Shown: in pieces, positions 29,554-55,952 of the stretch
Layout: each line of letters opens with the position of its first letter
How positions within the stretch are numbered: position 1 is the stretch's first letter
Origin: Streptomyces bohaiensis
GTDB lineage: Bacteria; Actinomycetota; Actinomycetes; Streptomycetales; Streptomycetaceae
Direction of reading: 5' to 3'
NCBI RefSeq assembly: GCF_012033785.1
Contig: NZ_JAAVJC010000005.1
Span: 1-56,150, forward strand
Length of the DNA stretch: 56,150 nt
The notes under the pieces: generated by a model
Seen by the model: only the letters and a program-made list of their open reading frames with translations
Database searches by the model: none
Told to the model about the DNA's origin: nothing
Program-made: the position numbers and the translations under genes

Positions 29554-30681
29554 TCACGAGGTTGAGCCGGCCCGTACCGGTCCGGCGTCGGCGCCCTGGC
29601 GGCCCCAACGGGTGGCGACCAGCGACCGGCAGGTGGCGGCGACCAGGGGAAGGCCGGCGGGGGTGGGCATGCCCGGCCACGCCTCGCGCAGCCGGTCGTT
29701 GGTGAACTCCTTGGGGTGGAACATCTGCTCCGCGAACGGCGCGACGGTGCGCAGCGCGCCGGCGGCCGGGCTGCCGCGGAGGCCGTCGGCAGCGGCGAGC
29801 AGGTGGCGGAAGGTCGCGTCGTCGCAGAACTCGGGCCGCAGCAGCCGTCGGCGGCGGAACGCGGGGTCCTCGCCGAACACGTCGAAGGCGGTGTCCATGA
29901 CGTCGGTCAGCGGCAGCGCCTGCCCGGCGGTGGGTGCGAGGTGGTAGACGCCGGTGGGCGCGTCGGCCGAGGCGAGCCGGACGACGGCGGCGCTGGTGAA
30001 GGCGGCGGTGGCGAGGTAGAGCCGGGTGTGGGGCAGCCCCGGCATGACGGTCATCAGGCCGTAGAAGAACATCTTCAACGTGTTGTGGAAGACGTTGTAC
30101 TGGGTGACGGCGCCCCGGTCGTCGTCGGCGACGATGGTGGACAGCCGGGCGACGGACAGCGGCAGGTCGGGGAACTCGGCGGCGACGAGGCGTTCGCCCG
30201 CTGCCTTGGACCATTCGTAGTGGTTGGCGTTCTCGGCCTCCCCCACCAGTGCCGTCTCCGGTACGGGGCCGGTGCGCAGCCCGGCGCTGACGAGGGTGGA
30301 CAGCAGGACGAGGCGTTCCAGCGCGGGGCAGCGCGCCGCGAAGTCGGCGACGCGGCGGGTGCCGTCGACGTTGACGCGCTCGGCGACGGGGCGGCTGACG
30401 TCGAAGGCGGTGCGCGCCGCGGAGTGCACGACGGCGGTGACGTCGCCGGTGACGGCGGCGAGCGGCGCCTCGTGGGTGAGATCGGCCGGCAGGACCTCGA
30501 CCCGGCCGTCGGCGGCGGGCCCGAGTTCGGGGAGCAACCGGGCTGTCTTGGCGTCGAGTTCGGCACGGTCGGCGGCGCGGACCGTCAGGACGAGCCGGGT
30601 GTCGGTGTCGGCGAGGAAGCGGGCCGCGACCCGGCGCCCGATGTACCCGTCGGCCCCGGTGACGACCACGCGGCCGCTCAT
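29554..30681 (-). CDS. NAD(P)-dependent extended SDR, thioester-reductase-like
   Basis: 375 residues with VVVTGADGYIGRRVAARFL (glycine motif), AVVHSAARTAFD, LSTLVSAGLRTG, HYEWSKAAGERLVA (YxxSK catalytic pair) and a long C-terminal substrate domain (MFFYGLMTVMPGLPHTRLYLAT). The organisation resembles the thioester-reductase/fatty acyl reductase branch that releases carrier-bound acids as aldehydes or alcohols. ATG 30681 overlaps the upstream ligase stop (ATGA). It likely reduces an acyl- or aminoacyl-thioester in the pathway. A simple sugar-epimerase role is less likely in this setting. Confidence 0.82.
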   Translation of the reverse strand: MSGRVVVTGADGYIGRRVAARFLADTDTRLVLTVRAADRAELDAKTARLLPELGPAADGRVEVLPADLTHEAPLAAVTGDVTAVVHSAARTAFDVSRPVAERVNVDGTRRVADFAARCPALERLVLLSTLVSAGLRTGPVPETALVGEAENANHYEWSKAAGERLVAAEFPDLPLSVARLSTIVADDDRGAVTQYNVFHNTLKMFFYGLMTVMPGLPHTRLYLATAAFTSAAVVRLASADAPTGVYHLAPTAGQALPLTDVMDTAFDVFGEDPAFRRRRLLRPEFCDDATFRHLLAAADGLRGSPAAGALRTVAPFAEQMFHPKEFTNDRLREAWPGMPTPAGLPLVAATCRSLVATRWGRQGADAGPVRAGSTS

Positions 30682-31583
30682 GACGGGCTCCCCTGTGCGG
30701 CGGCGCGGACGTCGGGCCAGCCGTCGGGGTCGGCGCCCCAGCGGTGGGTCAGGGCGTACAGCCAGCGTTCGATGCCGAAGGCGACGCAGCCGGTGCTGGC
30801 GGGGCGGCCGTCGCGGACGATGCCGTAGGCGGTGCCGAAGTGGTCCTCGTGCAGGTTGACCGAGGCGAGGGCCAGCTGCCCGTACAGCGCCTCGTGCTTG
30901 GTGGGGCTGATCCGCTGCGCGAGGTGGCGGGGGTCGGCGGCGGGGTCGAAGAACGGATCGGTCGCGGCCTCCCAGCGCACCGGCAGGTCGAGTGCGGCCA
31001 TGAGCCGCGCGACGGCGGCGCGGGTCGTGGTGAGGAACTCCCGGACCTCCTCGCGGGAGCCGACGCAGACGAGTTCCCGCATCTGGAAGCTCCACTGGCG
31101 GCGCAGCGGCGCGTAGTGCTCCTCGCGGCGGAAGCAGGTGTTGCGGGTGGTGACGTGGAGCGGGGCGCGCAGTTCCTCGCCGCGGTGGTGCAGGTAGACG
31201 TGGTAGCAGGCCGCGGGGGTGAGGACGTCCGCGGGCGGGGTGAGGCTGCTCGGCGGTACCGGCTCGCCGGGGACGCGGGCGTCCCGGAACGCGCGGAGGT
31301 CGGTGTCCTCGGGCGAGAGGGTCGCGGCGAGGGTCGCCAGGTGGGGGAAGGACCGGAGGTAGTCGACGGGGTCGAGGTCCGCGGCGCGCAGCACAGCCGG
31401 GTGGTGCTCGGGTTCCGGCGGGCGGGCTCCGGCGAGGGAGACGAACGCGTTGTCGCAGGCGGTGGCCAGGGCGAGCAGCGGACCGGTGAGGGTGGCGTGG
31501 CCGCTCTCGTGCCAGCGCAGGCCGGCGGCGCGCAGTCCCGCCGGGAGGACGGGGGCTTCGGCGGGGGCTTCGGCGGGGGTCAC
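30678..31583 (-). CDS. Amino acid:[carrier protein] ligase (class II aaRS-like)
   Basis: 301 residues resembling the truncated atypical seryl-tRNA synthetase homologues that charge carrier proteins instead of tRNA. Motif 2-like RNTCFRREEHYAPLRRQWSFQMRELVCVG and motif 3-like TGCVAFGIERWLYAL form the adenylation site. CYHVYLHHRGEEL, SPTKHEALYG and NLHEDHFGTAYGI are also family-typical. The tRNA-binding coiled-coil arm is absent. The GTG start overlaps the stop of a carrier protein gene, its expected acceptor. It should activate a small amino acid (Gly, Ala or Ser-type) as aminoacyl-AMP and transfer it to that carrier's pantetheine arm. Confidence 0.85.
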   Translation of the reverse strand: MTPAEAPAEAPVLPAGLRAAGLRWHESGHATLTGPLLALATACDNAFVSLAGARPPEPEHHPAVLRAADLDPVDYLRSFPHLATLAATLSPEDTDLRAFRDARVPGEPVPPSSLTPPADVLTPAACYHVYLHHRGEELRAPLHVTTRNTCFRREEHYAPLRRQWSFQMRELVCVGSREEVREFLTTTRAAVARLMAALDLPVRWEAATDPFFDPAADPRHLAQRISPTKHEALYGQLALASVNLHEDHFGTAYGIVRDGRPASTGCVAFGIERWLYALTHRWGADPDGWPDVRAAAQGSPS

Positions 31584-31852
31584 GGGGCGGTGGTCCGCTC
31601 CGTGGCGGTGGCGTCCGTGTCGAGGAAGGTGGCGGCGATGGTGGTGATGTCGCGGAAGTCCCCGGCCGTCAGCTCCTCGACGTCGACGGGGCGTCGGCGC
31701 AGCCGCTCCAGGAGCAGGATCAGCTCGGGCAGGTGGAGGGAGGTGAGGTGGCGTCCCTCCCACAGCGGCAGGTCGTCGGTGAGGCCGCCGGGCGGCAGAT
31801 CGCGGGCTCGCGCGGTCACCCAGTTCCGTACCTGGTCGACGTCAGAAGGCAT
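31580..31852 (-). CDS. Carrier protein, partner of the aminoacyl ligase
   Basis: 90 residues, predicted helical. LPLWEGRHLTSLHLPELILLLERLRRRPVDVEELTAGDFRDI aligns with the aminoacyl-carrier-protein pattern, where the pantetheine Ser lies in a DS(L/M) motif. Here the Ser is kept but the preceding Asp is Thr (TSL). It sits directly between the di-iron gene (11-bp overlap) and the ligase gene (4-nt overlap). The tight coupling supports its being the ligase's acceptor. Whether it is pantetheinylated with the changed motif is uncertain. Confidence 0.78.
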   Translation of the reverse strand: MPSDVDQVRNWVTARARDLPPGGLTDDLPLWEGRHLTSLHLPELILLLERLRRRPVDVEELTAGDFRDITTIAATFLDTDATATERTTAP

Positions 31853-32777
31853 CGGCGGGTTCTTTCTGCAGGATTCCGGTGGAGAGGAGGAAGCGGAGGC
31901 ACCGGTCGGAGTAGTTCCGGCGGTGGGCCCGCTGGGAGGGCGCGTTCCAGGCGTCCTCGGCGGCCTGCCAGGGGTCGGCGAGGCCCAGATCGGCGTAGAC
32001 GTCGGGGTTGTAGTACTCGCGCCAGGTGGTGACGAAGAACTGGCCGATCCGGTCGCGGACCTCGTCGCGGGTGGCCGCGTCCCACTCCGGGGCGTGGGTG
32101 TCCCACAGGGCCTGCACGATGGCCCGGTTGAACACCAGGTGCCGGGTCTCGTCGGCGTGGTGGGCCTGGTTGATGAACCGGGCCAGCGGGTGCAGCCGCT
32201 CGTCGCGGGCCTGGTGGACGTTGTAGGCGTCGGCGTGCTCCTCGAACAGCAGCGCCTTGGCGAAGAAGAGGACGTCGGCGACGGACCGGTCGCCCTCGGC
32301 GGGGAAGGGGATGTTCCTGCTGCGGTAGAGGGTGCCGTAGCGGCGGCAGAAGCCCCCGAAGTAGACGCTGTGCTTGTTCTCCTCGTCGAGGAAGTGGTGG
32401 AGGTAGTCGGAGATCTCCAGCAGGTCGCTGCGGTAGAGGCGGCTCGCCAGGCCCTCCATCAGTGCCTTCTCGCCGTGGATGTTCAGGCTGAAGAAGTTGG
32501 ACGCCTCCAGGAAGGCGAACCGCCTGAACTCCTCCGAATCGGGTTCCGGTTGGTGGGGCGTGCCGTGGAGGGAGGTGATCTCGGGGGTGAAGAACCAGTC
32601 GGCGCCGGGGTCGACGGAGTCCGGCCAGCTGAGCGCGGCGTAGGGGTTCTGGTACTTCGCGCGGGAGACCTCGCTGAGGCGGTCGACGGTGCCCGAGACG
32701 GCGGCGATCGCCGCGCGCAGCCGGGCGCCCCGGCCGGCGCGCGCCCCGCTGCCGCCGCCTGCGCTCGTCGCGGTCAT
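31842..32777 (-). CDS. AurF/CmlI-like di-iron N-oxygenase family protein
   Basis: 311 residues. Metal-binding helices are seen as FLEASNFFSLNIHGEKALMEGL, YLHHFLDEENKHSVYFGGF (ExxH), ALLFEEHADAYN, and NQAHHADETRHLVFNRAIV (ExxH), in the order typical of AurF/CmlI. Known members oxidise amines to hydroxylamine, nitroso or nitro groups. ATG 32777 overlaps the KAS III-like stop (ATGA). Together with the aminotransferase and aminoacyl transfer genes in this cluster, N-oxidation of an amine or of an N-N intermediate is the best inference. Confidence 0.85.
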   Translation of the reverse strand: MTATSAGGGSGARAGRGARLRAAIAAVSGTVDRLSEVSRAKYQNPYAALSWPDSVDPGADWFFTPEITSLHGTPHQPEPDSEEFRRFAFLEASNFFSLNIHGEKALMEGLASRLYRSDLLEISDYLHHFLDEENKHSVYFGGFCRRYGTLYRSRNIPFPAEGDRSVADVLFFAKALLFEEHADAYNVHQARDERLHPLARFINQAHHADETRHLVFNRAIVQALWDTHAPEWDAATRDEVRDRIGQFFVTTWREYYNPDVYADLGLADPWQAAEDAWNAPSQRAHRRNYSDRCLRFLLSTGILQKEPADAF

Positions 32778-33736
32778 GCGGTCACCTCCACCACGGTGGC
32801 CTGCCAGTTCAGGCCGTGGCCCGCCATGGCGAGCAGGATGCGCTGGCCCGGACGGAGTTCGGCGGACTCCAGCAGGGACGACAGGTTGATGATGTTGTCG
32901 GCGGAGATGGCGTGGGCGACGTCGGGGAGGGTGCGCTGCCAGACCCGTTCGTGGTCGATGCCGAGGAGTCCCGCGACGATCCGCCAGGCGTGCCGGTTGG
33001 TGTTCTGCGGGACGACCCAGTCGATGTCCGCGGTGGTGAGCCCGGCGCGTGCCAGTGTCTGCCGGACCAGGAGCGGGACGTAGGAGAAGAAGGTCCCGAC
33101 CGACTCGTCGTCGCTCGCCGTGTGCAGCCCGCCGTTGGTGATCTGGTGCGTGGCGACCAGCCGCAGCCCCCGGGTGCCGGGAGCGGGGCGGGCGGTGACC
33201 AGGCAGGCCGCCGCGCCGTCGGAGATGACGTTGTAGGACTGCTCGTAGCGTGCGCCGGGCGGGAACCGGTCGGCGGAGACGCACAGGACGCGTTCCCACT
33301 CCGGCTCGGAGGCCAGCAGGGCGTCGGCCAGTCGCAGCGCCCCGAGCATGCCGGTGCAGCCCTGCTGGGTGAGGCCGAACACCACCGCCGTGTCGAGTCC
33401 GAGATCCGTCTGGAGGTGGCCGGCGGGGAACTCCATCAGGTGCTTGACGTCCCCGGTGGCCTCCCAGGCGGCCAGGTCGCCGATGCTGCCGTTCTGGGGC
33501 AGGCAGGTGTTGTAGACAATGGCGTCGACGCCGTCGTTCAGGGGCAGTCGGTCGGTGGCACCGCGGGCCAGGTCGTAACTGCCGTCACCGGGAGGGCAGA
33601 CGTGGTGCCGCGCGAACCCCGCCGCGAGAAGATCGTCCGGGGAGGAGCAGAGCCGCCCGGCCGCCGCGGACTCCGCCAGTTCGTACCGGGTGGCTCCGAG
33701 GCTGTAGGCCATGTCGCCGATGAACGCGCGCGCCAC
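32774..33736 (-). CDS. KAS III-like beta-ketoacyl synthase
   Basis: About 320 residues from GTG 33736. Catalytic triad: Cys in LTQQGCTGMLG, His in VVPQNTNRHAW and Asn in AHAISADNIINLSS. Members condense an acyl-CoA or acyl starter with malonyl- or acyl-ACP. GTG 33736 (GGAG 9 nt upstream) is preferred over ATG 33808 because a good sigma-70-like -10 element (CATACT) lies just after that ATG, so the ATG would not be in the mRNA. It is the first gene of the ten-gene operon. Confidence 0.85.
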   Translation of the reverse strand: MARAFIGDMAYSLGATRYELAESAAAGRLCSSPDDLLAAGFARHHVCPPGDGSYDLARGATDRLPLNDGVDAIVYNTCLPQNGSIGDLAAWEATGDVKHLMEFPAGHLQTDLGLDTAVVFGLTQQGCTGMLGALRLADALLASEPEWERVLCVSADRFPPGARYEQSYNVISDGAAACLVTARPAPGTRGLRLVATHQITNGGLHTASDDESVGTFFSYVPLLVRQTLARAGLTTADIDWVVPQNTNRHAWRIVAGLLGIDHERVWQRTLPDVAHAISADNIINLSSLLESAELRPGQRILLAMAGHGLNWQATVVEVTA

Positions 33737-38709: not shown

Positions 38710-39471
38710 GTGAAGATCAATCTTCTGGGGCCAATGGAGGTCACTGATGACGGGGTCCAGTTGCGGATACCGGGGGAGAAGTTACGCGCGGTCCTCGCCG
38801 CACTCGCACTGTCCGTACGCCGGTCGGTGTCCCGAAGCGAATTGATTGACGAATTGTGGGGGGAAACACCACCGAACAGCGCAGGAAATTCACTTCACGG
38901 CCACATCGCGCGCCTGCGACGCGTCCTCGTCGCCCACGGCGGCAGATCGGAGCTGCGGGACGTCATCCGCACCTCCCCCACCGGCTACGTGCTGGACCTC
39001 GCCCCCGAGAACGTGGACGTCTCCCGGCTCTTCCGCCTCGTGGCCCGCGCCGACGCCGCCGCGGCGCACGACCCGCGCACCGCCGTCGACCTGCTCAACG
39101 AGGCGCTGGCGCTCTGGCGCGGGCCGGCGCTGGTCGACGCCGGCAACGGCATGATCTGCCAGGTCGCCTACACCCAGCTGGAGGAGGTCAGACTGGGGGC
39201 GTACGAACGACTCTTCGACATCCGGCTGCGGTTGGACCAGGCCAGGGCCGTCATTCCCGACCTGGAGCTGCTGCACGCCCGCTACCCGCTGCACGAGCGG
39301 TTCTGCGAGCAGCTCATCACCGCGCTCTACCTGTCGGGGCGCCAGGCCGACGCGCTCAACACCTACCACCGCACCCGCGACTACCTCTCGCAGCACCTCG
39401 GCCTGCAACCCGGCCACGGCCTGCGCGACCGGGTGCAGGACATACTCCGCCAGGCGCCCCACCTCATCTGA
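38710..39471 (+). CDS. SARP-family (AfsR/DnrI-like) transcriptional activator
   Basis: 253 residues. An N-terminal OmpR-like winged helix: VKINLLGPMEVTDDGVQLRIPGEKLRAVLAALALSVRRSVSRSELIDELWGE, then GNSLHGHIARLRRVL. A bacterial transcriptional activation domain (BTAD) follows: LFRLVARADAAAAHD, LNEALALWRGPALVD, LRLDQARAVIPDLELLHARYPLHERFCEQLITALYLSGRQADALNTYHRTR. No ATPase extension, so the small SARP type. It starts with GTG 38710. SARPs bind 7-bp direct repeats spaced 11 bp near -35. Matching repeats occur at 40601-40640 and 48567-48595, making this the likely pathway-specific activator. Confidence 0.92.
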   Translation: MKINLLGPMEVTDDGVQLRIPGEKLRAVLAALALSVRRSVSRSELIDELWGETPPNSAGNSLHGHIARLRRVLVAHGGRSELRDVIRTSPTGYVLDLAPENVDVSRLFRLVARADAAAAHDPRTAVDLLNEALALWRGPALVDAGNGMICQVAYTQLEEVRLGAYERLFDIRLRLDQARAVIPDLELLHARYPLHERFCEQLITALYLSGRQADALNTYHRTRDYLSQHLGLQPGHGLRDRVQDILRQAPHLI

Positions 39472-39504: not shown

Positions 39505-40512
39505 TCACACCGACTTCGTGACCCGCAGGATCTGCCAGACGGCCCCCAGCCGCGCCTTCCCGTGGAACGCCAGGTACTCGGGATGGACCAGCTGGGGGCC
39601 CCACTTCTCCTTGTACGCCAGCTGGCTCGCGGCGGGGTAGATCTTCTCCCCGTGCTCGGCCAGCAGCCGCATGACGCGAGCGGTGCTCCGGCTGGACCGC
39701 GGCGGGTCGTGTTCCGGGGACAGGCCGGTGAACGGGGTGAAGCCGAAGTGCAGCCACGGCGCGCCCTCCTCGCGGAACGTCTCCAGCGCGGTGAGGTTGA
39801 TGGCCTCCATGACGCCCGGGGGCGCCTGCGGGACCCGCCGGCTCAGGTCGTGCAGCCATCCGGGACGCGACCCGTAGGCGGGCGAGTAGGAGATGTACGC
39901 GATCGGTTCGCCGTCGAGCCGGCCCAGCAGCAGCCGACGGGCGTGCTGCGCGGGCCCGCCCAGCTCTCCGACCAGGAACTCGATCTCCTTGACGTGCCGG
40001 CCCTTGCCACGGAGCCACGCGGTATCGATGCCCTCGATGCGGGCGCCCACCTCCTCCGGCGCGACCTCCGTGACCTCCAACCCGCTGCGTCGCGCGCGCG
40101 AGATCTTGTTGCGCAGCTTCATGAAGCGCGTACCGCGCAGCGAGAACTCCGGCAGGTGGACCGAGTAGGAGGAACCGACCTGGTTGACGGTGTAGCCGCA
40201 CCGGGCGTAGAGCTCGACGTCGGGCCCGAGCAGCTGGACCGCGACGGCCTTGCGGCGCCGCTCGCGCGCGTGGGCGAGGAAGGCGCGCAGCAGCGGCTCC
40301 CGTTCCGCCGGCGGCGCCCAGACGCCGCCGAACTGCACCAGGTACCGCCCGGCCTCCCGGTAGGCGATGACGCCCTCGGACGCAGGGGCGGTGAAGTAGG
40401 CGTTGCCCGCGTTGAGCGCGAGGAACGCGCTGGGGTTGTCGCCGTGGCTGCGCAGCTTCTCCAGCACCTCCAGCACCTCGTCGTCGGAGACGGTGCCGCC
40501 GGGGTTCGTCAT
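39505..40512 (-). CDS. MprF/VlmA-like aminoacyltransferase (DUF2156)
   Basis: 335 residues made of two GNAT-like folds as in the catalytic part of lysylphosphatidylglycerol synthase. Seen: FGGVWAPPAEREPLLRAFLAHARERRRKAVAVQLLG, YSVHLPEFSLRGTRFMKLRNKISRARRSGLEV (family-typical basic segment), GRLDGEPIAYISYSPAYGSRPGWLHDLSRR, GVMEAINLTALE and WLHFGFTPFTGL. Known members move an amino acid from aminoacyl-tRNA to lipid. VlmA of valanimycin moves Ser from Ser-tRNA to a hydroxylamine. Here an aminoacyl donor could be the cluster's Ser-type tRNA-like RNA or the ligase-charged carrier. ATG 40512 diverges from the aldehyde dehydrogenase operon. Confidence 0.85.
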   Translation of the reverse strand: MTNPGGTVSDDEVLEVLEKLRSHGDNPSAFLALNAGNAYFTAPASEGVIAYREAGRYLVQFGGVWAPPAEREPLLRAFLAHARERRRKAVAVQLLGPDVELYARCGYTVNQVGSSYSVHLPEFSLRGTRFMKLRNKISRARRSGLEVTEVAPEEVGARIEGIDTAWLRGKGRHVKEIEFLVGELGGPAQHARRLLLGRLDGEPIAYISYSPAYGSRPGWLHDLSRRVPQAPPGVMEAINLTALETFREEGAPWLHFGFTPFTGLSPEHDPPRSSRSTARVMRLLAEHGEKIYPAASQLAYKEKWGPQLVHPEYLAFHGKARLGAVWQILRVTKSV

Positions 40513-40600: not shown

Positions 40601-40640
40601 GTCTCAGCGCGTTCTCAGTCCCGTCTCCGGGGATTCTCAG
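40601..40640 (+). promoter_or_regulatory. SARP-type boxes: four 7-bp repeats at 11-bp spacing
   Basis: GTCTCAG (40601), TTCTCAG (40612), GTCTCCG (40623) and TTCTCAG (40634) start exactly 11 bp apart on one face of the helix, 78 bp before the aldehyde dehydrogenase start. This is the known geometry of SARP operators. They also lie in the shared region with the aminoacyltransferase gene. Confidence 0.8.
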
Positions 40641-40717: not shown

Positions 40718-42400
40718 GTGAGCAGCGATGTCGCAATGACCCCGACGTCGACGGAAGAACCGACCGAAGCGTCTTCTTCCGGTATCACGACCTATCTGTC
40801 CCTGGTGGGCGGCGAGACCGTTCCCGGTGAGGAGTGGGTCTATGTCGTCGACTCCGACGCCCTGCTCGACAACGCGTTCGCGACGCTGTCCCTGAAAAGA
40901 AAACTCGAACGCGGAAAAGTCTCGGCAAAGAATCTTCCGCCGACCATCGTCGGCCGGGTGGCGCGGGCCGACCGCGCCACCACGGAACGCGCCCTGGCGG
41001 CGGCGGCCGCGGCGACGGGGCCGTGGTCGCAGGTCCCTCCGGAGATCCGCATCGACCGGTTCGGGGAACTGCTCCGCCGCCGGCTCGTCGAGCGGTCCGA
41101 ACAGCTGACCGAGGTGCTGGTCAGGGAGGGGCACCCCCTCGCGCTGGCGCGGTGGCAGGTGTCGGGCGCCCTGGAGGTGTTCGGGCCGGAATCGCTGGGT
41201 TTCTACCGTTCCCAGATGCTGCAGGAGTTCCACCACGGGGACCGGCGGATCTCGGTCCGCCGGCGTCCCGACGGCGTGGTCTGCCTCAACCCGCCGCAGA
41301 ACGCGCCGCTCTCCAGCGCCCTGCTGGGAGTGACCGCCATCATGGCCGGTAACTCCCTTGTGGTCCGCGCGCCCCGTAGTGCGCCCCTGGGCGCGATGTA
41401 CGTGCTGCAGGAAGTCGTCGCGCCGGTCCTGGCCGAACTCGGCGCCCCGCCCGGCACGCTCAACGCGGTCTGCGGCGACCCCGCCCCCATGCTGAACGCC
41501 TGGCTGGAGAGCCCGCTGGTCGACGACATCATGTACTTCGGCAGCAGCGAGAACGGCATCCGCTTCCAGGAGCGCTGCATCGCCGCGGGGAAGAAACCGA
41601 TCCTGGAACTCGCCGGGAACGACGTCGTCCTGGTCTGGAAGGACGCCGACCTCGACGCGGCCGCGGACGCCATCACGGAGAGCTTCTACGGCTCCGGCCA
41701 GCTGTGCATGATCCCCAACCAGGTGGTCGTCCATCCCGACGTCTGCGACCGGCTGCTGGCGCTGCTGACCGAGCGGGCGGCGCGCATCCGGCCGGGCCGG
41801 GCCGCGGAAGAGGGCGTCCTGCTGACGCCCGTCCTGCGGAACGAGAAGTTCTTCTCCTGCCTCCAGGACGCCCTGGACCGGGGCGCCGAACTGGTCTGCG
41901 GCGGCCACGCCGTGCAGGAGGACGGCACCCGGGACACCGCCGGCATCTTCCTGGAGCCGACCGTGGTGCTGGTGCGCAGCGGGCTGGAGAAGGCGCGCGA
42001 GGTGCAGGCGGTCCGCGAGGAGACGTTCTTCCCGCTGCTGCCGGTGATCGTGGCGGAGCCGGCCCCCGACGACGTGCAGCTCGACCGGTTCGTCGACTTC
42101 GTCAACAGCAACGCCTACGGGCTGCGGAACTCCGCCTGGGCGAGCGACCCGGAGGTGGTCGACGCCGTCGTCGGCCGGATCACCCAGGGCGGGCTGCTGA
42201 AGGTCAACGACTCCCACATCGGCTTCCTGCCCTACCTGCCCACCCACGGCGGCACCGGGCTGACCGGCGGCGCCTTCGGCGAGGCCAACTACCCGATCCT
42301 GCGCACCTCCCACGTCCAGGGCGTCAGCGTCGCCACCGGCGTCCGTCCCACCGAGGCGGTCTTCGGCGCCTGGCAGGCGATGCGCGCCGCCGCCGACTGA
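40718..42400 (+). CDS. Aldehyde dehydrogenase family protein (possible acyl-thioester reductase)
   Basis: 560 residues, longer than a typical ALDH (about 480), with an N-terminal extension of about 75 residues. Core motifs: PPQNAPLSSALLGVTAIMAGNSLVVRAP (cofactor region), GSSENG, Glu in ILELAGNDVVLVW, catalytic Cys in YGSGQLCMIPNQVVVHP, EETFFPLLPVI and HGGTGLTGGAFGEANY. The GTG start at 40718 is preceded by GGAGGG. First gene of the plus-strand operon and just downstream of SARP boxes. It may oxidise an aldehyde or, in reverse, reduce a carrier- or CoA-bound acid to the aldehyde needed by the downstream aminotransferase. Confidence 0.88.
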   Translation: MSSDVAMTPTSTEEPTEASSSGITTYLSLVGGETVPGEEWVYVVDSDALLDNAFATLSLKRKLERGKVSAKNLPPTIVGRVARADRATTERALAAAAAATGPWSQVPPEIRIDRFGELLRRRLVERSEQLTEVLVREGHPLALARWQVSGALEVFGPESLGFYRSQMLQEFHHGDRRISVRRRPDGVVCLNPPQNAPLSSALLGVTAIMAGNSLVVRAPRSAPLGAMYVLQEVVAPVLAELGAPPGTLNAVCGDPAPMLNAWLESPLVDDIMYFGSSENGIRFQERCIAAGKKPILELAGNDVVLVWKDADLDAAADAITESFYGSGQLCMIPNQVVVHPDVCDRLLALLTERAARIRPGRAAEEGVLLTPVLRNEKFFSCLQDALDRGAELVCGGHAVQEDGTRDTAGIFLEPTVVLVRSGLEKAREVQAVREETFFPLLPVIVAEPAPDDVQLDRFVDFVNSNAYGLRNSAWASDPEVVDAVVGRITQGGLLKVNDSHIGFLPYLPTHGGTGLTGGAFGEANYPILRTSHVQGVSVATGVRPTEAVFGAWQAMRAAAD

Positions 42401-42610: not shown

Positions 42611-43750
42611 TTGCGTTCGCTGCAATCCGCACGTGAGACGTGCGAGAAGTTCCTGCCCGGCCTGCTCGACCGGCTCGCCGACGTCCCGCTGGAGGAGCTG
42701 GAGGCGCCCCGCAGCGTCGCCTTCGACGACTTCCGGGCCGCCGGCGGCCCGGCCCTGCTGGTCCCCGCCTCCTACGGCGGTATCGGCGCCGACCCGCTGC
42801 AGGCGCTCGCGGTGGTGCGGGCCCTCGCGTCGCGCGCCCCCTCGCTGGCCGTCGCCACCACGATGCACCACTTCTCGGTGGCGACGCTCTTCACGCTCGC
42901 CGACAGCATCCAGAGCAGCGGCATGGAGTGGGCCCTGCTGGAGGGCATCGCCGAGCAGCGGCTGCTGGTCGCGTCCGGCTTCGCCGAGGGCCGCCCCGGT
43001 CGGGGCATCCTCTCGCCGACGATGTCGGCGGTCGAGGCCGAAGGAGGCTACCGCGTCAACGGCGCCAAGAAGCCCTGCAGCCTCGCGCACTCGATGGACC
43101 TGCTCACCGCGAGCGTGGCGCTGCCCGCCGCCGACGGCGGGGAGCCGTCCATGGCGGTGCTGCTGGTGCCCCGGGAGACCGAGGGGATCTCCGTCCACCC
43201 CTTCTGGGGCAGCCGGACGCTGGCCGGCGCCGAGAGCGACGAGGTGCGGCTGACCGACGTCTTCGTCGACGAGAAGCTGCTGATGCGCACCGAGCCCTCG
43301 GTCGCCGGCCGGCTCGACGACCTGCAGACCGTCGGCCTCATCTGGTTCGAGCTGCTGATCTCCGCCTGCTACCTCGGCATCGTCAGCGGCCTGGTGGAAC
43401 GGGTGGTGGACGGCGGACGCGGCAGCGCCGCGGACCGTGCCCGGGTGCTGACCCGACTGGAGACGGGCGCCCTGCTGCTGGAGGGCACCGCCCGGATGAT
43501 CGCGGACGGCGACACCGACAACGCCGACCTGGCACGCACCCTCGTCGCCCGCTACGGCGTGCAGGACGCGCTGCGGGACGCGCTGGGCCAGGCCGTGGAG
43601 CTCCTGGGCGGGTCGGCGTTCATGTCCTCCTCCGACGTCGGCTACCTCGCCGGCGCCGCGCACGGCCTGTCGTTCCACCCGCCGTCGCGGGCGAGCTTCA
43701 CCGACCCCTATCTCGACCACGCCGCGGGCCGGCCGCTGCGCCTGACCTGA
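42611..43750 (+). CDS. Acyl-CoA dehydrogenase-like flavoprotein (dehydrogenase or N-hydroxylase)
   Basis: 379 residues from a TTG at 42611 (GAGGGGG upstream). It has the acyl-CoA-dehydrogenase fold: an N-terminal helical part (VPASYGGIGADPLQALAVVRALASR), FAEGRPGRGILSPTMSAVEAEGGYRVNGAKKPCSLAHSMD (FAD beta-domain), and a C-terminal helical bundle (LGGSAFMSSSDVGYLAGAAHGLSFHPPSR). The acyl-CoA-recognition sequences are weak, as in two-component flavin monooxygenases such as VlmH. A flavin reductase gene at 55419 could supply reduced flavin. It is therefore either a desaturase or an amine N-hydroxylase; the second fits the cluster better. Confidence 0.82.
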   Translation: MRSLQSARETCEKFLPGLLDRLADVPLEELEAPRSVAFDDFRAAGGPALLVPASYGGIGADPLQALAVVRALASRAPSLAVATTMHHFSVATLFTLADSIQSSGMEWALLEGIAEQRLLVASGFAEGRPGRGILSPTMSAVEAEGGYRVNGAKKPCSLAHSMDLLTASVALPAADGGEPSMAVLLVPRETEGISVHPFWGSRTLAGAESDEVRLTDVFVDEKLLMRTEPSVAGRLDDLQTVGLIWFELLISACYLGIVSGLVERVVDGGRGSAADRARVLTRLETGALLLEGTARMIADGDTDNADLARTLVARYGVQDALRDALGQAVELLGGSAFMSSSDVGYLAGAAHGLSFHPPSRASFTDPYLDHAAGRPLRLT

Positions 43751-43762: not shown

Positions 43763-45100
43763 ATGACATCGACCCCAGCCGCACCTATGCCGCCGCTGCG
43801 CACCCCGGCCCCGCCGGCCGTGCGGACGGCCGTCCCCGGGCGGGACGAACTCGGGGCCCTCTACCGGGCCCACCTCAGCAAGGGCCGGGCCACGCTCGGC
43901 GAACTCTTCGGCGGTCACGTCGAGGTCGCCTCCCAGGGGGCCTGGGTCACCACCGCCGACGGCAGCCGCTTCCTCAACTGCGGCGGCTACGGCGTCTTCC
44001 TCTCCGGGGCGCGGCACCCCACGGTGGTGCGGCACGTCGCCGAGCAGCTGGCGACGCACCCCGTGGCGACGCGGCTGTTCCTGGAGCCCCAGGCGGCGCT
44101 GGCGGCCGACGCGCTGGTCGCCGTCGCGCCCGCCGGGCTGGAGCGGGTGCACTTCGCCGGCTCGGGGGCGGAGGCGGTGGAGGCCGCGGTGAAGCTGGCG
44201 CGCACCCGCGGCCGCCGCCGGCTGGTCGCCACCGAGAACGGTTACCACGGCAAGACGATGGGCGCGCTGAGCCTGACCGGCCGGAGCGTCTTCCAGGAGC
44301 CGTTCCGCCCGCTGCTGCCGGACACCACCCACGTCCCGTTCGGCGACGCCGCCGCCCTGGAGGCCGTGGTGGCGGCCCATCCGGGCGAGGCGTGCGTGGT
44401 GCTGGAGCCCGTCCAGGGCGAGGCGGGGGTGGTGATCCCGCCCGACGGCTACCTGCGGGCGGTGCAGGAGATCTGCCGCCGCCACGGCGCCTTCCTGGTG
44501 CTGGACGAGATCCAGACGGGGCTCGGGCGGCTCGGCTCGTGGTGGGGCGTAGACCGCGAGGGCGTCACCCCCGACGTGCTGCTGGTCGGCAAGGGCCTCA
44601 GCGGCGGGATCGTCCCGGTCTCGGCGGTGGTCGCCACCCACGCGGCGTTCCGGGCGTTCGACCGGGACCCCTACCTGCACACCTCCACCTTCGCGGGGGC
44701 GCCCCTGGCGATGGCGGCCGTCCGCGGGGCCCTGGCCGCGCTGCACGAGGACGACCTCGTCACCCGCTCCCGGCAGCTCGGCGCGGAGATCCTGCCGGAG
44801 CTGGAACGGATCGTCCGCGCCCACTACGGCACCGCCGTCCGCGAGGTCCGGGGCCGGGGGTTGCTGCTGGGGATCGAGTTCGCCGAGCCCGGCCCGGCCG
44901 GCGACCTGCTGATCGAGCTGATCATGAACGGCGTCATCGCCAACCACTCCCTCAACTCGCACCTCGTCCTGCGCTTCACCCCGCCCGCGGTGCTCACCCG
45001 CGGCGACCTGGACTTCTTCTACGAGGCGGTCGACCGGGCGTGCCGCGCGCAGAGCGTCCGCTACGGAACGACGACAGAAGGCGGCAGCAACCATGCGTAG
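43763..45100 (+). CDS. Class III (omega) aminotransferase
   Basis: 445 residues, PLP-dependent. SRFLNCGGYGVFLSGARHP, HFAGSGAEAVEAAVKLART (phosphate cup), ENGYHGKTMGALSLTG, LVLDEIQTGLGRLGSWWGVD (Asp for the pyridine nitrogen), and the Schiff-base Lys in LLVGKGLSGGIVPVSA, then HTSTFAGAPLAMAA. Full family length. ATG 43763 is 12 nt after the previous stop. Its end overlaps the SRPBCC gene by 8 nt. It would convert an aldehyde (for example a fatty aldehyde) to an amine. Confidence 0.93.
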   Translation: MTSTPAAPMPPLRTPAPPAVRTAVPGRDELGALYRAHLSKGRATLGELFGGHVEVASQGAWVTTADGSRFLNCGGYGVFLSGARHPTVVRHVAEQLATHPVATRLFLEPQAALAADALVAVAPAGLERVHFAGSGAEAVEAAVKLARTRGRRRLVATENGYHGKTMGALSLTGRSVFQEPFRPLLPDTTHVPFGDAAALEAVVAAHPGEACVVLEPVQGEAGVVIPPDGYLRAVQEICRRHGAFLVLDEIQTGLGRLGSWWGVDREGVTPDVLLVGKGLSGGIVPVSAVVATHAAFRAFDRDPYLHTSTFAGAPLAMAAVRGALAALHEDDLVTRSRQLGAEILPELERIVRAHYGTAVREVRGRGLLLGIEFAEPGPAGDLLIELIMNGVIANHSLNSHLVLRFTPPAVLTRGDLDFFYEAVDRACRAQSVRYGTTTEGGSNHA

Positions 45101-45623
45101 CGTCAGCGTCACCCTCAGGATCGCCGACCAGGACGCCCAGCAGGCGTTCGACCGGGTCAGCGCGTTCAGCCGCTACCCGGAGCTGACCGACGTGATCCGG
45201 TCGGTGGAGACCCGGCAGGTCTCCCCCTCCGCGGAGATCAGCGACTGGGAGGTCTACTTCCGCAACGGCGTGCTGTGCTGGAGCGAGAGCGACCTCTTCG
45301 ACCGGGAGACCCTCACCATCACCTTCGAGCAGGTGGACGGCGACTTCGCGGAGTTCCGCGGCACCTGGCGGATGGAGGCCGACGGGCCGCACTGCCTGGT
45401 GGTCTTCGCCGCCGAGTTCGACTTCGGCATCCCCAGCCTCGCCGGCATCCTGGACCCGGTCGCGCAGCGGGTGTTCAAGGAGACCATCGCCCGCGTGGTC
45501 ATCGGACTGTTCGCGGGCGGCGCCGAGGTGGTGGGCGACGAGGCCGTCGCCCGGGCGGTCGCCGACGCGCGGGCCGTCGCCGAGGCGCGGGCCGCGGCGG
45601 CGGGCGCTCCGGGGGCGCTCTGA
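45093..45623 (+). CDS. SRPBCC (polyketide cyclase-like) family protein
   Basis: 176 residues with the START/Bet v1-like pattern: AFDRVSAFSRYPELTDVIRSVET, SDWEVYFRNGVLCWSESDLFD, ITFEQVDGDFAEFRGTWRM, FAAEFDFGIPSLAGILDPVAQRVFKETIARVVIGL, then an Ala/Arg-rich tail. Members bind hydrophobic ligands and act as aromatase/cyclase or lipid carriers. ATG 45093 overlaps the aminotransferase end; its stop TGA overlaps the next ATG. No aromatic polyketide synthase is present, so a lipid-binding or condensation-assisting role is more likely. Confidence 0.82.
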   Translation: MRSVSVTLRIADQDAQQAFDRVSAFSRYPELTDVIRSVETRQVSPSAEISDWEVYFRNGVLCWSESDLFDRETLTITFEQVDGDFAEFRGTWRMEADGPHCLVVFAAEFDFGIPSLAGILDPVAQRVFKETIARVVIGLFAGGAEVVGDEAVARAVADARAVAEARAAAAGAPGAL

Positions 45624-46183
45624 TGGATGCCCGCAACCTCTTCGAGACGCCGACGACCTACCGGCTGATCCGGCTGGAGTACGCGCTGGGGCTGGCGGTC
45701 GCCACGGTCCTGCTGCTGGCCAACCTGGGCGAGGTCCGCTGGGTCGCCTTCGTCGCGCTGTTCGTGTACATCGACCTCATCGGCTACATCCCGGGGGCGA
45801 TGGCCCACCACCGCAGCCCGACCGGGGAGGTCCACCGGGCCTACTACGTGCTCTACAACGTGATGCACAGCCTGGTGACGCAGGGGCTGGTGGTCCTCGC
45901 CTGGATCTGGCTGTGGGGCGCGGAGTGGGCGCTGCTCGCCATCCCGATCCACCTCTTCGGCGACCGCGCGCTCTTCGGCAACTTCCTCAAGCCGTTCGCG
46001 GTGAGCTTCGAGCCGGTCCCCCACCCCGCCTACGCGCGGCTCGCCGCCGACATGGCGGCGCCGGCAGCCGGTCGCCCCGCCGCCCCCGGCGCCTCCCCCG
46101 GCGCCTCCGCGTCCGAGGACGGCCCCGCCGGCGCGCCCGAGGCGACCGGCACCGCCGCCGCCCACCGGGCCCCGAACACCTGA
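45623..46183 (+). CDS. Small integral membrane protein of the cluster
   Basis: 186 residues with about four membrane segments (LEYALGLAVATVLLLANLG, WVAFVALFVYIDLIGYIPG, LYNVMHSLVTQGLVVLAWIW, WALLAIPIHLFGDRALFG). Conserved-looking His and acidic residues lie on the same side (AHHRSPTGEVHRAYY, NVMHS, HLFGDRALF), which may form a metal or catalytic centre. A low-complexity Ala/Pro tail follows. Valanimycin's cluster also encodes an essential integral membrane protein (VlmO); equivalence is a guess from context. ATG 45623 overlaps the SRPBCC stop (TGATG). Confidence 0.75.
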   Translation: MDARNLFETPTTYRLIRLEYALGLAVATVLLLANLGEVRWVAFVALFVYIDLIGYIPGAMAHHRSPTGEVHRAYYVLYNVMHSLVTQGLVVLAWIWLWGAEWALLAIPIHLFGDRALFGNFLKPFAVSFEPVPHPAYARLAADMAAPAAGRPAAPGASPGASASEDGPAGAPEATGTAAAHRAPNT

Positions 46184-48566: not shown

Positions 48567-48595
48567 GTCTCAGGAGAATCTCAGCGGGATCTCAG
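48567..48595 (+). promoter_or_regulatory. SARP-type boxes: three 7-bp repeats at 11-bp spacing
   Basis: GTCTCAG (48567), ATCTCAG (48578) and ATCTCAG (48589) start exactly 11 bp apart, 59 bp before the tRNA-like gene. Same heptamer and spacing as upstream of the aldehyde dehydrogenase operon. Confidence 0.8.
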
Positions 48596-48653: not shown

Positions 48654-48740
48654 GGAGAGGTACCCGAAGTGGCCCAACGGGGATCCGGAGCGATCCGGAT
48701 CGGGTGCAAGCCCCCGCAGGTTCGAATCCTGCCCTCTCCG
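48654..48740 (+). tRNA. Ser-type class II tRNA-like gene with abnormal anticodon hairpin
   Basis: An 87-nt cloverleaf. Acceptor GGAGAGG/CCTCTCC (48654-48660 with 48733-48739), T8-A9, D-stem CCCG/CGGG with GG in the loop, variable arm GGGT-GCAA-GCCC (48702-48713), T-stem GCAGG/CCTGC with loop TTCGAAT, discriminator G (48740). These are serine features. The anticodon arm is GATCCGG/CCGGATC (48682-48688, 48695-48701) with a 6-nt loop AGCGAT, or an 8-nt loop if only 5 bp pair. There is no normal 7-nt loop with U33, so decoding is unlikely. SerRS ignores the anticodon, so charging is still possible. It may be a dedicated donor RNA or a pseudogene. Confidence 0.75.
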
Positions 48741-51267: not shown

Positions 51268-52287
51268 ATGAACATCGACCCCAGCACCGCGGACGCCGCA
51301 CGACTGAACTGGACGCAGTACCGCCCGGGGCAGCGGGCGGGCCACTACGAGAGCTTCTACCAGCGGGGCAACCACCCGACCGAGCCCCGCGCGTTCTGGA
51401 TCCGCTACACCGTCTTCAGCCCCGAGGGGATGCCGGAGTCGGCCATCGGCGAGCTGTGGGCGGTCCACTTCGACGGCACCACCGGTCGGCACGTGGTGGC
51501 GAAGGAGGAGCACCCGATCGCCGACTGCCACTTCTCGCCGGACTCCTTCGGCGCGCGGATCGACGGGAGCGTCCTGGAGCCGGGCGCGCTGCGCGGCGAG
51601 GCCCGCGGCACGGACGGCCGGATCGGCTGGGACCTGACCTACAAGGGGTCCGAGCCTCCGCTGCTGCTGCTCCCGCCGCGGATGTACACCGGCGGCTTCC
51701 CCAAGGCGAAGAGCCTCGTCGGTCTGCCGCTGGCGACCTACTCCGGCACCCTCACCGTGGACGGCGAGACCGTCGACATCGACGGCTGGACCGGCAGTCA
51801 GAACCACAACTGGGGCAGCCGGCACACCGACCACTACGCCTTCGGGCAGGTCGCCGGGTTCGACGGCGAGCCCGACACGTTCCTGGAGATCGTGACCGGC
51901 CGGACCCGCGTGGCCGGGCCCGTCATGACGCCGAAGGTCACCTTCCTGGTGCTGCGCCACCACGACCGGGAGTACCAGCTCTCCTCCCTCGGCAGGGCGC
52001 TGCGCGCCAAGGGCGACTTCGGCTACTTCTACTGGGACTTCGCCAGCTCGGACGAGGCGGTCGCCATCCGCGGCCGGTTCACCGCGGCCCCGGCCGACTT
52101 CGTCGGCCTCAACTACTACAACCCGCCCGGCGGCATCAAGCACTGCCTCAACACCAAGATCGGCCGGTGCGACCTCCAGATCACCAACAAGGCGACCGGC
52201 CGGGTGGAGCGCCTGACCGCCTCCGACCGGGCGCTGATGGAGATCCTCACCGACGACCGCGACCACGGAGTCCCGATCCGCGCATGA
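51268..52287 (+). CDS. AttH/CrtC-like lipocalin-fold protein
   Basis: 339 residues. Two beta-barrel-like halves with the family blocks RAFWIRYTVFSPEG, FDGTTGRHVVAKEEHP, DLTYKGSEPPLLLLPPRMYTGGFPKAKSL and the distinctive SQNHNWGSRHTDHYAFGQV, then YFYWDFASSDEAVAI. Relatives include carotenoid 1,2-hydratase and AttH-like proteins in natural product clusters, acting on hydrophobic substrates. GGAAGACGGACCC precedes ATG 51268; the stop overlaps the MMPL start (ATGA). A hydratase or cyclisation role is possible but unproven. Confidence 0.75.
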   Translation: MNIDPSTADAARLNWTQYRPGQRAGHYESFYQRGNHPTEPRAFWIRYTVFSPEGMPESAIGELWAVHFDGTTGRHVVAKEEHPIADCHFSPDSFGARIDGSVLEPGALRGEARGTDGRIGWDLTYKGSEPPLLLLPPRMYTGGFPKAKSLVGLPLATYSGTLTVDGETVDIDGWTGSQNHNWGSRHTDHYAFGQVAGFDGEPDTFLEIVTGRTRVAGPVMTPKVTFLVLRHHDREYQLSSLGRALRAKGDFGYFYWDFASSDEAVAIRGRFTAAPADFVGLNYYNPPGGIKHCLNTKIGRCDLQITNKATGRVERLTASDRALMEILTDDRDHGVPIRA

Positions 52288-55418: not shown

Positions 55419-55952
55419 ATGCCGCACGTCATAGCCGGCGCGCCGAGCAGCGGACCCGAGGCGGAGCCGGTGCCCGGCAGGAAGCCGTGCCTGGACTTCT
55501 TCTCCGGCCTGGCCGCCGGGGTCGCCCTCGTCACCGCGTCCACCGACGACGGGCCCGTCGGGACGACCGTCTCGACCGTCACCTCGCTCTCGGCGGAGCC
55601 GCCGCTGCTGCTGCTCTGCCTCGCCCACTCCTCGCGCACCCTGGACGCGCTGCGCACCCGCGACCGCTTCGCCGTCCACCTGCTGGCGGAGGGCCAGTCC
55701 CTCCGCGCCCGCCGGTTCTCCTCGGCACCGCCGGCGGAGCGGTTCGCCGCGGAGTCGTACGAGGAGAGCCTGGGCGCGCCCGTCCTGGCGGACGCCCTGA
55801 GCTGGGCGGTCTGCCGCACGGCCGAGATCCGCCCCTACGGGGACCACTGCCTGGTCGTCGGACGGCTCACCGCGCTGCGCGCCGGGCCGGGCCGGCCGCT
55901 GATCTGGCACGATCGCGCCTTCCACGCTCTGGCCGAGCAGGGGCCGCGATGA
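55419..55952 (+). CDS. Flavin reductase family protein
   Basis: 177 residues: FFSGLAAGVALVTASTDDGPVGTTVSTVTSLSAEPPLLLLCLAHSSRTLDALR is the typical FMN-binding split-barrel start; FAVHLLAEGQSLRARRFSS, SWAVCRTAEIRPYGDHCLVVGRL and LIWHDRAFHAL follow. It supplies reduced FMN/FAD from NAD(P)H to a partner monooxygenase, here perhaps the acyl-CoA-dehydrogenase-like protein (42611) by analogy with VlmR/VlmH. ATG 55419 has AGGAAGGAG upstream; its stop overlaps the next start (ATGA). Confidence 0.92.
   Translation: MPHVIAGAPSSGPEAEPVPGRKPCLDFFSGLAAGVALVTASTDDGPVGTTVSTVTSLSAEPPLLLLCLAHSSRTLDALRTRDRFAVHLLAEGQSLRARRFSSAPPAERFAAESYEESLGAPVLADALSWAVCRTAEIRPYGDHCLVVGRLTALRAGPGRPLIWHDRAFHALAEQGPR

What the first reader, a model, noticed from the sequence alone, without database searches (positions are those of the whole stretch)
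48654..48740. Ser-type tRNA-like gene with a non-decoding anticodon hairpin inside the biosynthetic cluster
The sequence folds into a complete class II cloverleaf with serine features (long variable arm with GCAA tetraloop, discriminator G, acceptor GGAGAGG), but the anticodon arm is a 7-bp stem with a 6-nt loop and no U33. SerRS is known to read the variable arm and acceptor, not the anticodon, so it could still be serylated while staying out of translation. The same cluster encodes an MprF/VlmA-like transferase, a family that uses aminoacyl-tRNA. SARP boxes just upstream imply co-regulation with the cluster. Inference: a tRNA dedicated to secondary metabolism. I know of no described example.
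Basis: partly seen in the sequence, partly recalled or inferred. Interest (0 to 1): 0.93.

Follow-up and report, generated by a model that had tools for sequence, protein, structure and literature searches.

The report
Anticodon-less serine tRNA for azoxy biosynthesis
A Streptomyces gene cluster of the kind that makes azoxy natural products encodes an RNA built like a serine tRNA but without a normal anticodon loop; in the Streptomyces genomes sampled, relatives turn up only where a gene for the amino-acid-transferring enzyme VlmA is present, so it is likely a serine carrier reserved for making the natural product and predicted to be unusable for making protein.

Summary
In 199 Streptomyces genomes the RNA occurs in 21, all among the 38 with VlmA, 0 of 161 without. 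Where both share a contig (15 of 21) they lie 163 bp to 13.1 kb apart. On a tree of 108 VlmAs, 57 of 57 RNA-linked ones fall in one clade of 63. A SARP-type repeat precedes 65 of 78 distinct RNA genes (0.4% of random stretches). A divergent seryl-tRNA synthetase accompanies 10 of 21 RNA genomes and 0 of 17 other VlmA genomes. The best-scoring ordinary tRNAs examined are tRNA-Ser. Most likely: SARP-switched RNA, charged by SerRS, spent by VlmA, kept out of translation. Expression, charging and transfer are untested. Ten searches of an open-access library found no description.

The parts
48654..48740 (+). tRNA-Ser-like RNA gene without a decoding anticodon loop (acceptor 48654-48660/48733-48739, D arm 48663-48681, T arm 48716-48732, discriminator G 48740)
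   Evidence: ARAGORN tRNA-???; fold; family alignment and covariation; own covariance model R1 97.8 bits
48682..48701 (+). anticodon arm turned into an 8-bp hairpin with GCGA tetraloop
   Evidence: fold; stem covaries in relatives; loop sizes of relatives
48702..48713 (+). long (class II) variable arm, GGGU-GCAA-GCCC
   Evidence: fold; 4 pairs, 96.9% of cells paired in 24 relatives
48567..48595 (+). SARP-type box: three heptamers (GTCTCAG, ATCTCAG, ATCTCAG) at 11-bp spacing, first TCAG 84 bp upstream of the RNA
   Evidence: sequence; pattern upstream of 65 of 78 distinct RNA genes, 76 of 20,000 random stretches
40602..40640 (+). second SARP-type box (TCTCAG at 40602, 40613, 40635) between the VlmA-like gene and the ALDH operon
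   Evidence: two repeats at 11 bp upstream of VlmA in 20 of 31 RNA-type loci, 0 of 32 others
39505..40512 (-). VlmA-like aminoacyl-tRNA-dependent transferase (LPG_synthase_C / DUF2156)
   Evidence: Pfam PF09924 E 2.7e-63; homologues in azoxy-type clusters
38710..39471 (+). SARP regulator (BTAD + Trans_reg_C)
   Evidence: Pfam
40718..42400 (+). aldehyde dehydrogenase family protein (predicted aldehyde-forming step)
   Evidence: Pfam PF00171
42611..43750 (+). VlmH-like flavin-dependent N-hydroxylase candidate (acyl-CoA dehydrogenase fold)
   Evidence: Pfam, DszC-like matches; conserved gene order
43787..45100 (+). class III aminotransferase (predicted alkylamine-forming step)
   Evidence: Pfam PF00202
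45623..46183 (+). VlmO-like membrane protein candidate
   Evidence: 55% identity to the protein between the VlmB-like and SRPBCC genes of an annotated plasmid cluster
55419..55952 (+). flavin reductase (VlmR-like partner candidate)
   Evidence: Pfam PF01613

Best explanation
The locus encodes a serine-tRNA-like RNA that has no normal anticodon loop and sits in an azoxy-type gene cluster, where it is predicted to be charged with serine and to hand that serine to the VlmA-like transferase instead of to the ribosome. Steps: (1) the cluster's SARP activator likely binds the repeats at 48567-48595 and switches the RNA on together with the operon at 40.7 kb (motif shown, binding inferred); (2) the transcript is trimmed and given CCA like a tRNA (inferred from the intact acceptor/T-arm geometry and G73); (3) a SerRS that reads the long variable arm, acceptor stem and G73, but not the anticodon, would charge it: in the window's genome the one SerRS found, in a sister subclade possibly a cluster-encoded divergent SerRS (genes shown, charging inferred); (4) VlmA would move the seryl group to an alkyl-hydroxylamine, the known VlmA reaction, ahead of azoxy formation; (5) lacking a decoding loop, the RNA should not read codons, so its serine would not be drawn off by translation.
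For: Co-occurrence: RNA in 21 of 199 Streptomyces genomes, all among the 38 with VlmA, 0 of 161 without (Fisher p 2e-18); class-wide 4 of 4 RNA genomes among 8 VlmA genomes of 296, partly the same genomes; plasmids: 10 of 11 RNA records carry VlmA, which is on 13 of 72,556, several being near-copies of one another. Linkage: 15 of 15 same-contig genomes within 13.2 kb, 6 within 400 bp. Phylogeny: 57 of 57 RNA-linked VlmAs in one clade (support 90), 6 changes against 36.3 in shuffles. RNA: of 89 distinct members G73 is in 89, G2-C71 in 89, A3-U70 in 89, G1-C72 in 88, one identical T arm in 84; changes on both sides in 11 of 26 pairs and in all 6 anticodon-stem pairs counted. Serine: the ten ordinary tRNAs examined among the model's next-best matches (57.7-65.5 bits) are all tRNA-Ser, six of them UGA genes of Streptomyces with GGAGA acceptors. 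Regulation: SARP box upstream of 65 of 78 RNA genes. Synthetase: divergent SerRS in 10 of 21 RNA genomes, 0 of 17 VlmA genomes without RNA. Chemistry: VlmA uses Ser-tRNA in valanimycin (passages of PMC12945691; PMC4052509); VlmJ/VlmK-like genes, which act late in that serine-derived pathway, occur in some RNA-type loci and in 1 of 32 loci of the other type.
Against: No expression, charging or transfer data. Five VlmAs inside the RNA clade have no RNA found: L168 (MAG), L205 (Nocardia), L211 (genome with two VlmAs) and the pair G073/G086b; four of these loci were also checked with filters off. So the RNA is not strictly required, or was missed. In G033, G145 and G117 no copy shares a contig with VlmA, and G003, G033, G145 and G117 hold 4-10 copies each, mostly scattered. 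One genome (G259) has an RNA but only a VlmA of the other clade in the sequence held; nothing azoxy-like lies within about 10 kb of that RNA. In the window's own genome the best ordinary tRNA for the model is tRNA-Tyr (52 bits), and the T arm is nearer to host tRNA-Tyr (15/17) than to host tRNA-Ser (11-12/17). The window's own cluster has no VlmB, VlmJ, VlmK or SerRS homologue by tblastn. A forced 5+7 register gives U at 33 in 8 of 90 members.
Confidence: 0.82

Rival explanations
1. The RNA is not a donor but a regulatory decoy: it binds SerRS or VlmA without being spent, for example to tune SerRS activity.
For: Tandem and scattered multi-copy genes could suit a titrating RNA; no charging data exist.
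Against: Acceptor end, G73 and T arm are the most conserved parts, as expected if the 3' end is used; the conserved partner is an aminoacyl-tRNA-using enzyme; one subclade has its own SerRS.
Confidence: 0.08
2. The RNA is charged, but with another amino acid, or spent by another enzyme than VlmA.
For: T arm nearest to host tRNA-Tyr; a VlmA relative has been proposed to use alanyl-tRNA in azodyrecin biosynthesis (passage of PMC9379638).
Against: G73 in 89 of 89 members is, from memory, the serine discriminator among class II tRNAs, and host Leu and Tyr genes end in A; next-best ordinary tRNAs are tRNA-Ser; SerRS paralogues go with the RNA. Going by gene numbers in the passage, azodyrecin's VlmO and VlmA genes are neighbours, which is the RNA-free order.
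Confidence: 0.06
3. It is a working tRNA with an unusual loop, for example a quadruplet-decoding or frameshift-suppressing tRNA.
For: ARAGORN assigns a 4-nt anticodon 'gcga'; ARAGORN gives ordinary anticodons, of differing amino acids, to some relatives.
Against: Loops differ in size (3 to 8 nt) and letters; 0 of 81 distinct arms is a 17-nt arm with U33; the window's loop closes to a GNRA tetraloop.
Confidence: 0.02
4. It is a tRNA pseudogene or integration-site relic carried along with the cluster.
For: Some copies lie on plasmids and away from VlmA; the orphan in G259 has letter changes in an otherwise near-invariant T arm.
Against: Compensatory changes, near-invariant acceptor and discriminator, own SARP-type boxes and presence in Streptomyces, Kitasatospora, Kutzneria, Micromonospora and a Streptosporangiaceae bacterium.
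Confidence: 0.02

Closest known systems
Valanimycin VlmA/VlmL system (Streptomyces viridifaciens)
   Same: VlmA-family transferase, VlmH/VlmR/VlmO-type genes, SARP gene, seryl-tRNA as donor; a cluster SerRS in one subclade here
   Different: In the passages read the donor is simply seryl-tRNA(Ser) and no cluster-encoded tRNA is mentioned; how serine is steered away from translation is called unknown (PMC4052509). Whether the vlm cluster has this RNA could not be checked.
Azodyrecin / KA57-A clusters
   Same: VlmA, VlmH, VlmO, aminotransferase; an S. rochei strain (L173), the species of the KA57-A producer, is in the set
   Different: L173 and its kind have another VlmA clade and gene order; no RNA in 17 of 17 such genomes (two more such genomes do hold an RNA away from the listed VlmA). 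For azodyrecin the authors assume the cellular tRNA pool (passage of PMC9379638)
Housekeeping tRNA-Ser
   Same: G73, class II variable arm, GGAG acceptor start in 3 of 4 host genes, similar D arm in the UGA gene
   Different: The four tRNA-Ser genes of the window's genome have ordinary anticodons TGA, GCT, CGA, GGA
Non-proteinogenic staphylococcal tRNA-Gly for cell-wall bridges (recalled)
   Same: a tRNA set aside from translation to feed a Fem-type transferase
   Different: Glycine, class I, keeps an anticodon, serves peptidoglycan
tmRNA and viral tRNA-like structures (recalled)
   Same: charged tRNA-like ends without a decoding loop
   Different: tmRNA is alanylated and works on the ribosome; viral ones are 3' ends of genomes; none feeds small-molecule synthesis

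Membership tests
canonical tRNA-Ser | class II cloverleaf with discriminator G73 | tested here: met
   G73 in 89 of 89 distinct members
canonical tRNA-Ser | 7-nt anticodon loop with U33 and a serine anticodon | tested here: not met
   0 of 81 distinct arms is a 17-nt arm with U33; 1 of 90 folds with a 7-nt loop, without U33
canonical tRNA-Ser | acceptor and D-stem elements read by bacterial SerRS (G1-C72, G2-C71, A3-U70, C11-G24; recalled) | tested here: met
   88, 89, 89 and 88 of 89
canonical tRNA-Ser | charged with serine | not testable with these tools
   needs a charging assay
Rfam RF00005 tRNA | reaches gathering score 29 bits | tested here: not met
   one search lists only the two normal tRNAs at 4177 and 4440
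tRNA-Sec (RF01852) | reaches gathering score 47 bits | tested here: not met
   25.5 bits
aliphatic azoxy biosynthetic cluster | VlmA and VlmH homologues close together | tested here: met
   window 39505-40512 and 42611-43750; criterion from PMC9379638. VlmH assignment rests on fold family and gene order, not on a VlmH sequence
aliphatic azoxy biosynthetic cluster | VlmB, VlmO and VlmR homologues | tested here: inconclusive
   VlmO-like 45623-46183, flavin reductase 55419-55952; no VlmB-like found in the window
aliphatic azoxy biosynthetic cluster | makes an azoxy compound | not testable with these tools
   no product data
SARP regulon | direct heptamer repeats at 11-bp period upstream, SARP gene in cluster | tested here: met
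   site definition from passages of PMC7040171; binding not tested

The most novel reading that the evidence does not exclude
A whole family of cellular tRNAs has given up decoding to become private amino-acid carriers of a secondary-metabolite pathway, in one lineage with a matching private SerRS: an orthogonal serine charging system, switched on by a SARP, that solves how antibiotic producers divert aminoacyl-tRNA from translation. It would be the first described class of anticodon-less donor tRNAs for small-molecule synthesis and a marker for finding tRNA-dependent natural products.
Probability: 0.75. Interest if true: 0.95.

Novelty: new variant of a known kind. Interest (0 to 1): 0.92.

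Why it matters
[quoted passage not shown] A dedicated RNA that can be charged but cannot decode would answer that for its relatives and is easy to test. It would also show tRNAs evolving into pathway-specific carriers, offer a natural SerRS/tRNA pair that could be orthogonal to translation, and give a 90-nt genomic tag, missed by Rfam's tRNA cut-off in the window, for one large clade of VlmA clusters.

Tried and rejected
Exact loop pattern in viral contigs: no hit. RNA in phage records: one partial match (52% of the query). Rfam at relaxed E-values gave only sub-threshold hits (tRNA-Sec, Y RNA, a plastid 3'UTR). Divergent RNA in clade members lacking it (L100, L104, L205, L168): best 19.6 bits with filters off, rejected. 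VlmB identity of window 51268-52287: no similarity. Fixed amino-acid differences between VlmAs with and without the RNA at an 85% cut-off: none. Idea that the RNA is unannotated everywhere: withdrawn. The plasmid gene table lacks RNA genes, and skipped locus tags (OG956_RS39415, RS39425, RS39485, OG338_RS00150) suggest that some copies are already called as some tRNA. First impression that the nearest ordinary tRNA is tRNA-Tyr: corrected on checking, since the higher-scoring ordinary tRNAs (57.7-65.5 bits; six of six, four of twelve genomes examined) are tRNA-Ser. A loose script test (forced 5+7 register) flagged U33 in 8 of 90 members and, in one (L008), a purine 37 too; none has a 17-nt arm, and L008 folds as 7 bp with a 3-nt loop, so they were not counted as canonical. 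The SerRS homologue search showed only that the paralogue family is large in Streptomyces and Kitasatospora (120 of 7,997 listed) and gave no VlmL name. In the tree L197 is labelled RNA- because its genome's RNAs share a contig with its second VlmA, and L192 was kept apart because its RNA is elsewhere. R1 searches of more than 40 genomes ran with stricter filters that can lose weak matches.

Full report
OBSERVATION. The element at 48654-48740 (+) is a full class II tRNA-like gene: 7-bp acceptor GGAGAGG/CCTCTCC, D arm with GG in the loop, variable arm with GCAA loop, T arm GCAGG-TTCGAAT-CCTGC and discriminator G. ARAGORN reports 'tRNA-???' with a 4-nt 'gcga'; Rfam's tRNA model does not accept it and tRNA-Sec scores 25.5 bits against a cut-off of 47. 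The same genome has four normal tRNA-Ser genes (UGA, GCU, CGA, GGA), so this RNA is not needed for serine codons.

FAMILY. A blastn search of 199 Streptomyces genomes gave matches in 26, many full length. Twenty-four sequences were aligned. Counted on that MAFFT alignment with a structure I wrote, 94.7% of cells pair (shuffles 88.6%, 0 of 500 as high; slid versions at most 58.7%), and 11 of 26 pairs show changes on both sides, including all 6 pairs of the anticodon stem. So the arm is kept as a stem while its loop is free. A covariance model R1 was built. Over 74 loci it found 95 matches, 89 distinct full-length RNAs. Isolated anticodon arms fold with loops of 4 nt (46), 5 nt (26), 3 nt (12), 6 nt (3), 8 nt (2) and 7 nt (1) of 90, one of them truncated. 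Arms are 16-24 nt long; 5 of 81 distinct arms have the canonical 17 nt and their position 33 is C, C, A, G, C, never U. In a forced 5+7 register 8 of 90 show U at 33, none of them a 17-nt arm. Pairing of the six outer positions, anchored at the ends, is 80.0% against 65.4% when 3' halves are shuffled among members (maximum of 2000 shuffles 70.0%).

OCCURRENCE FOLLOWS VlmA. R1 at 74 bits or more marks 53 copies in 21 of 199 Streptomyces genomes. The next matches, 57.7-65.5 bits in six genomes, are all ordinary tRNA-Ser(UGA) genes; at 52 bits come others, of which the one in the window's genome is tRNA-Tyr. VlmA at E<=1e-20 marks 38 genomes. All 21 lie in the 38; 0 of 161 others have the RNA (Fisher p 2e-18). 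In 15 of 21 genomes RNA and VlmA share a contig, always within 13.2 kb, and within 400 bp, divergently, in six; G113, G102 and G193 are in 230-1420 contigs; in G033, G145 and G117 no copy shares VlmA's contig. Class-wide, 4 of 296 genomes reach 74 bits and all 4 are among the 8 with VlmA; 12 more have only 59.6-62.5-bit matches, and the four of these that I looked at are ordinary tRNA-Ser (some genomes recur from the genus set). In 72,556 plasmid records, 11 hold the RNA over at least 80% of its length by blastn and 13 hold VlmA; 10 are shared, several being near-copies, and the 11th is, by length and coordinates, the second contig of G117, whose VlmA is on the first.

TWO KINDS OF VlmA CLUSTER. 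A scan of genomes with organism names gave 80 VlmA loci, the best of 251. R1 matched in 19 of them at 78 bits or more within the fetched flanks. Of 48 genomes then searched whole, 28 of 31 with the ALDH-VlmH-aminotransferase-SRPBCC-VlmO order have the RNA (8 of the 28 known; L207, whose flank shows only VlmA and SARP, is counted here by its place in the tree); 0 of 17 with the VlmO-VlmA-VlmH order, S. rochei among them, do. Of 21 further genomes 11 have the RNA, including two whose listed VlmA is of the second kind: L197, which has another VlmA on the RNA's contig, and L192, whose genome (G259) shows no second VlmA in the sequence held. The G259 RNA has no VlmA or other azoxy-cluster homologue within about 10 kb and carries changes in the T arm, perhaps a relic. 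On a tree of 108 VlmAs all 57 RNA-linked proteins fall in one clade of 63 (57 with, 5 without, 1 not searchable; support 90); the label needs 6 changes against 36.3 after shuffling. The RNA reaches Kitasatospora, Kutzneria, Micromonospora and a Streptosporangiaceae bacterium. One gain in the ancestor of this VlmA clade with a few losses is the simplest history (inference).

THE CLUSTER. VlmA-like 39505-40512, SARP 38710-39471, aldehyde dehydrogenase, acyl-CoA-dehydrogenase-type VlmH candidate, class III aminotransferase, SRPBCC protein, VlmO-like membrane protein, ACP, ketosynthase, methyltransferase, P450, MMPL transporter and flavin reductase. In a plasmid relative the genes stand close together with annotation: serS, ACP, KAS III, VlmB-like, a VlmO-like protein, SRPBCC, aminotransferase, acyl-CoA dehydrogenase, aldehyde dehydrogenase, MmgE/PrpD (VlmK-like), diacylglycerol kinase (VlmJ-like), the RNA, DUF2156 (the VlmJ/VlmK labels follow the Pfam/annotation types named in PMC9379638 and are my assignment). 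VlmJ and VlmK complete valanimycin from a Val- and Ser-derived intermediate (passage of PMC4052509), which fits serine. The window itself shows no VlmB, VlmJ, VlmK or cluster SerRS homologue.

REGULATION. Upstream of the window RNA stand three heptamers ending TCTCAG-type at 11-bp steps. TCAG-N7-TCAG occurs in the 150 bp upstream of 65 of 78 distinct RNA genes (three in a row in 51), first repeat 45-117 bp before the RNA, and in 76 of 20,000 random 150-mers. Of 19 copies in loci fetched for scattered copies 18 have it. The same box lies between VlmA and the ALDH operon (window 40602-40640; 20 of 31 RNA-type loci in 330 bp; 0 of 32 of the other type in up to 1500 bp; 430 of 20,000 random 330-mers). 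SARP sites are direct heptamers with 4-bp spacers (passages of PMC7040171). This puts the RNA in the cluster's regulon by motif; binding is inferred.

SYNTHETASE. Every one of the 38 VlmA genomes has a normal SerRS (82.6-94.3 bits to the N-terminal Pfam domain). A second one whose N-terminal, tRNA-binding domain scores only 26-38 bits lies within about 15 kb of VlmA (nine genomes) or 2.6 kb from the RNA (G193) in 10 of the 21 RNA genomes and in none of the 17 others (the G115 match, 26.0 bits, is under Pfam's cut-off of 28.2). Ten genomes, with and without the RNA, also have a further SerRS of 54-83 bits elsewhere. Seven divergent ones were read: 425 aa, and those scanned have the class II core; they are 36-37% identical to housekeeping SerRS. 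All ten genomes fall in one 25-row subclade of the tree; the window's genome shows a single SerRS. I infer housekeeping charging in the window's subclade and a private SerRS in the other.

WHY SERINE. All 89 distinct members have G73, G2-C71 and A3-U70, 88 have G1-C72. From memory, bacterial SerRS reads the variable arm, acceptor and G73 and ignores the anticodon, while Leu and Tyr tRNAs carry A73; the host Leu and Tyr genes do end in A. The best-scoring ordinary tRNAs examined are tRNA-Ser, several with acceptor GGAGAGT, one letter from the RNA's GGAGAGG. Against this, the window RNA's T arm is nearer to host tRNA-Tyr (15/17) than to host tRNA-Ser (11-12/17). All 89 members have A51-U63 in the T stem where the four host tRNA-Ser have G51-C63; from memory this could weaken EF-Tu binding, a hint only.

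LITERATURE. Ten full-text searches of the open-access library listed no paper that I could recognise, from titles and abstract starts, as describing a cluster-encoded tRNA for such pathways. I read passages, not whole texts, of PMC9379638, PMC12945691, PMC4052509, PMC7040171 and PMC6662830. PMC9379638 assumes the cellular tRNA pool for azodyrecin and notes SerRS genes near some VlmA groups; PMC4052509 calls the diversion of Ser-tRNA from translation unknown. Most subscription papers are not in the library.

VERDICT. The RNA family and its tie to one clade of VlmA clusters are shown. That it is serylated and spent by VlmA is the best explanation (0.82) and untested.

Noticed in passing
L022-L025 around 1501-1575 (-): A different, nearly identical 75-nt class I tRNA-like RNA with an 8-nt loop (ARAGORN 'ctga') lies next to a conserved 457-460 aa protein in four Streptomyces genomes (the one scanned has no Pfam match), and on five Streptomyces plasmids at 98-99% identity.
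   Followed up: partly
genomes G003, G033, G145, G117, G038: Extra copies of the RNA (up to 10 in a genome) lie far from VlmA; 18 of 19 examined have SARP-type boxes. On the G117 plasmid three lie around an annotated pentalenolactone-type gene set. Why they spread is unexplained.
   Followed up: partly
window 28085-33736 (-): A second biosynthetic block: amino acid:[carrier protein] ligase related to SerRS (30678-31583) beside a 90-aa ORF, AurF-type N-oxygenase, KAS III, reductase, a phosphopantetheinyl transferase/carrier protein and a COQ7/rubrerythrin-like protein.
   Followed up: partly
own genome G000:C37:4988-5058 (L072): A 72-nt odd tRNA-like gene (33 bits to Rfam tRNA, ARAGORN gives a 2-nt anticodon), without a long variable arm.
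   Followed up: no
window 23930-24025 (-): ARAGORN's tRNA-Thr call has no Rfam support and is probably a false positive.
   Followed up: no
G259 (genome of L192), C112:94650-94740; L281: An RNA copy in a genome whose only VlmA found is of the RNA-free clade, with T-arm changes and no azoxy genes within about 10 kb; a relic, or its cluster is missing from the assembly.
   Followed up: yes
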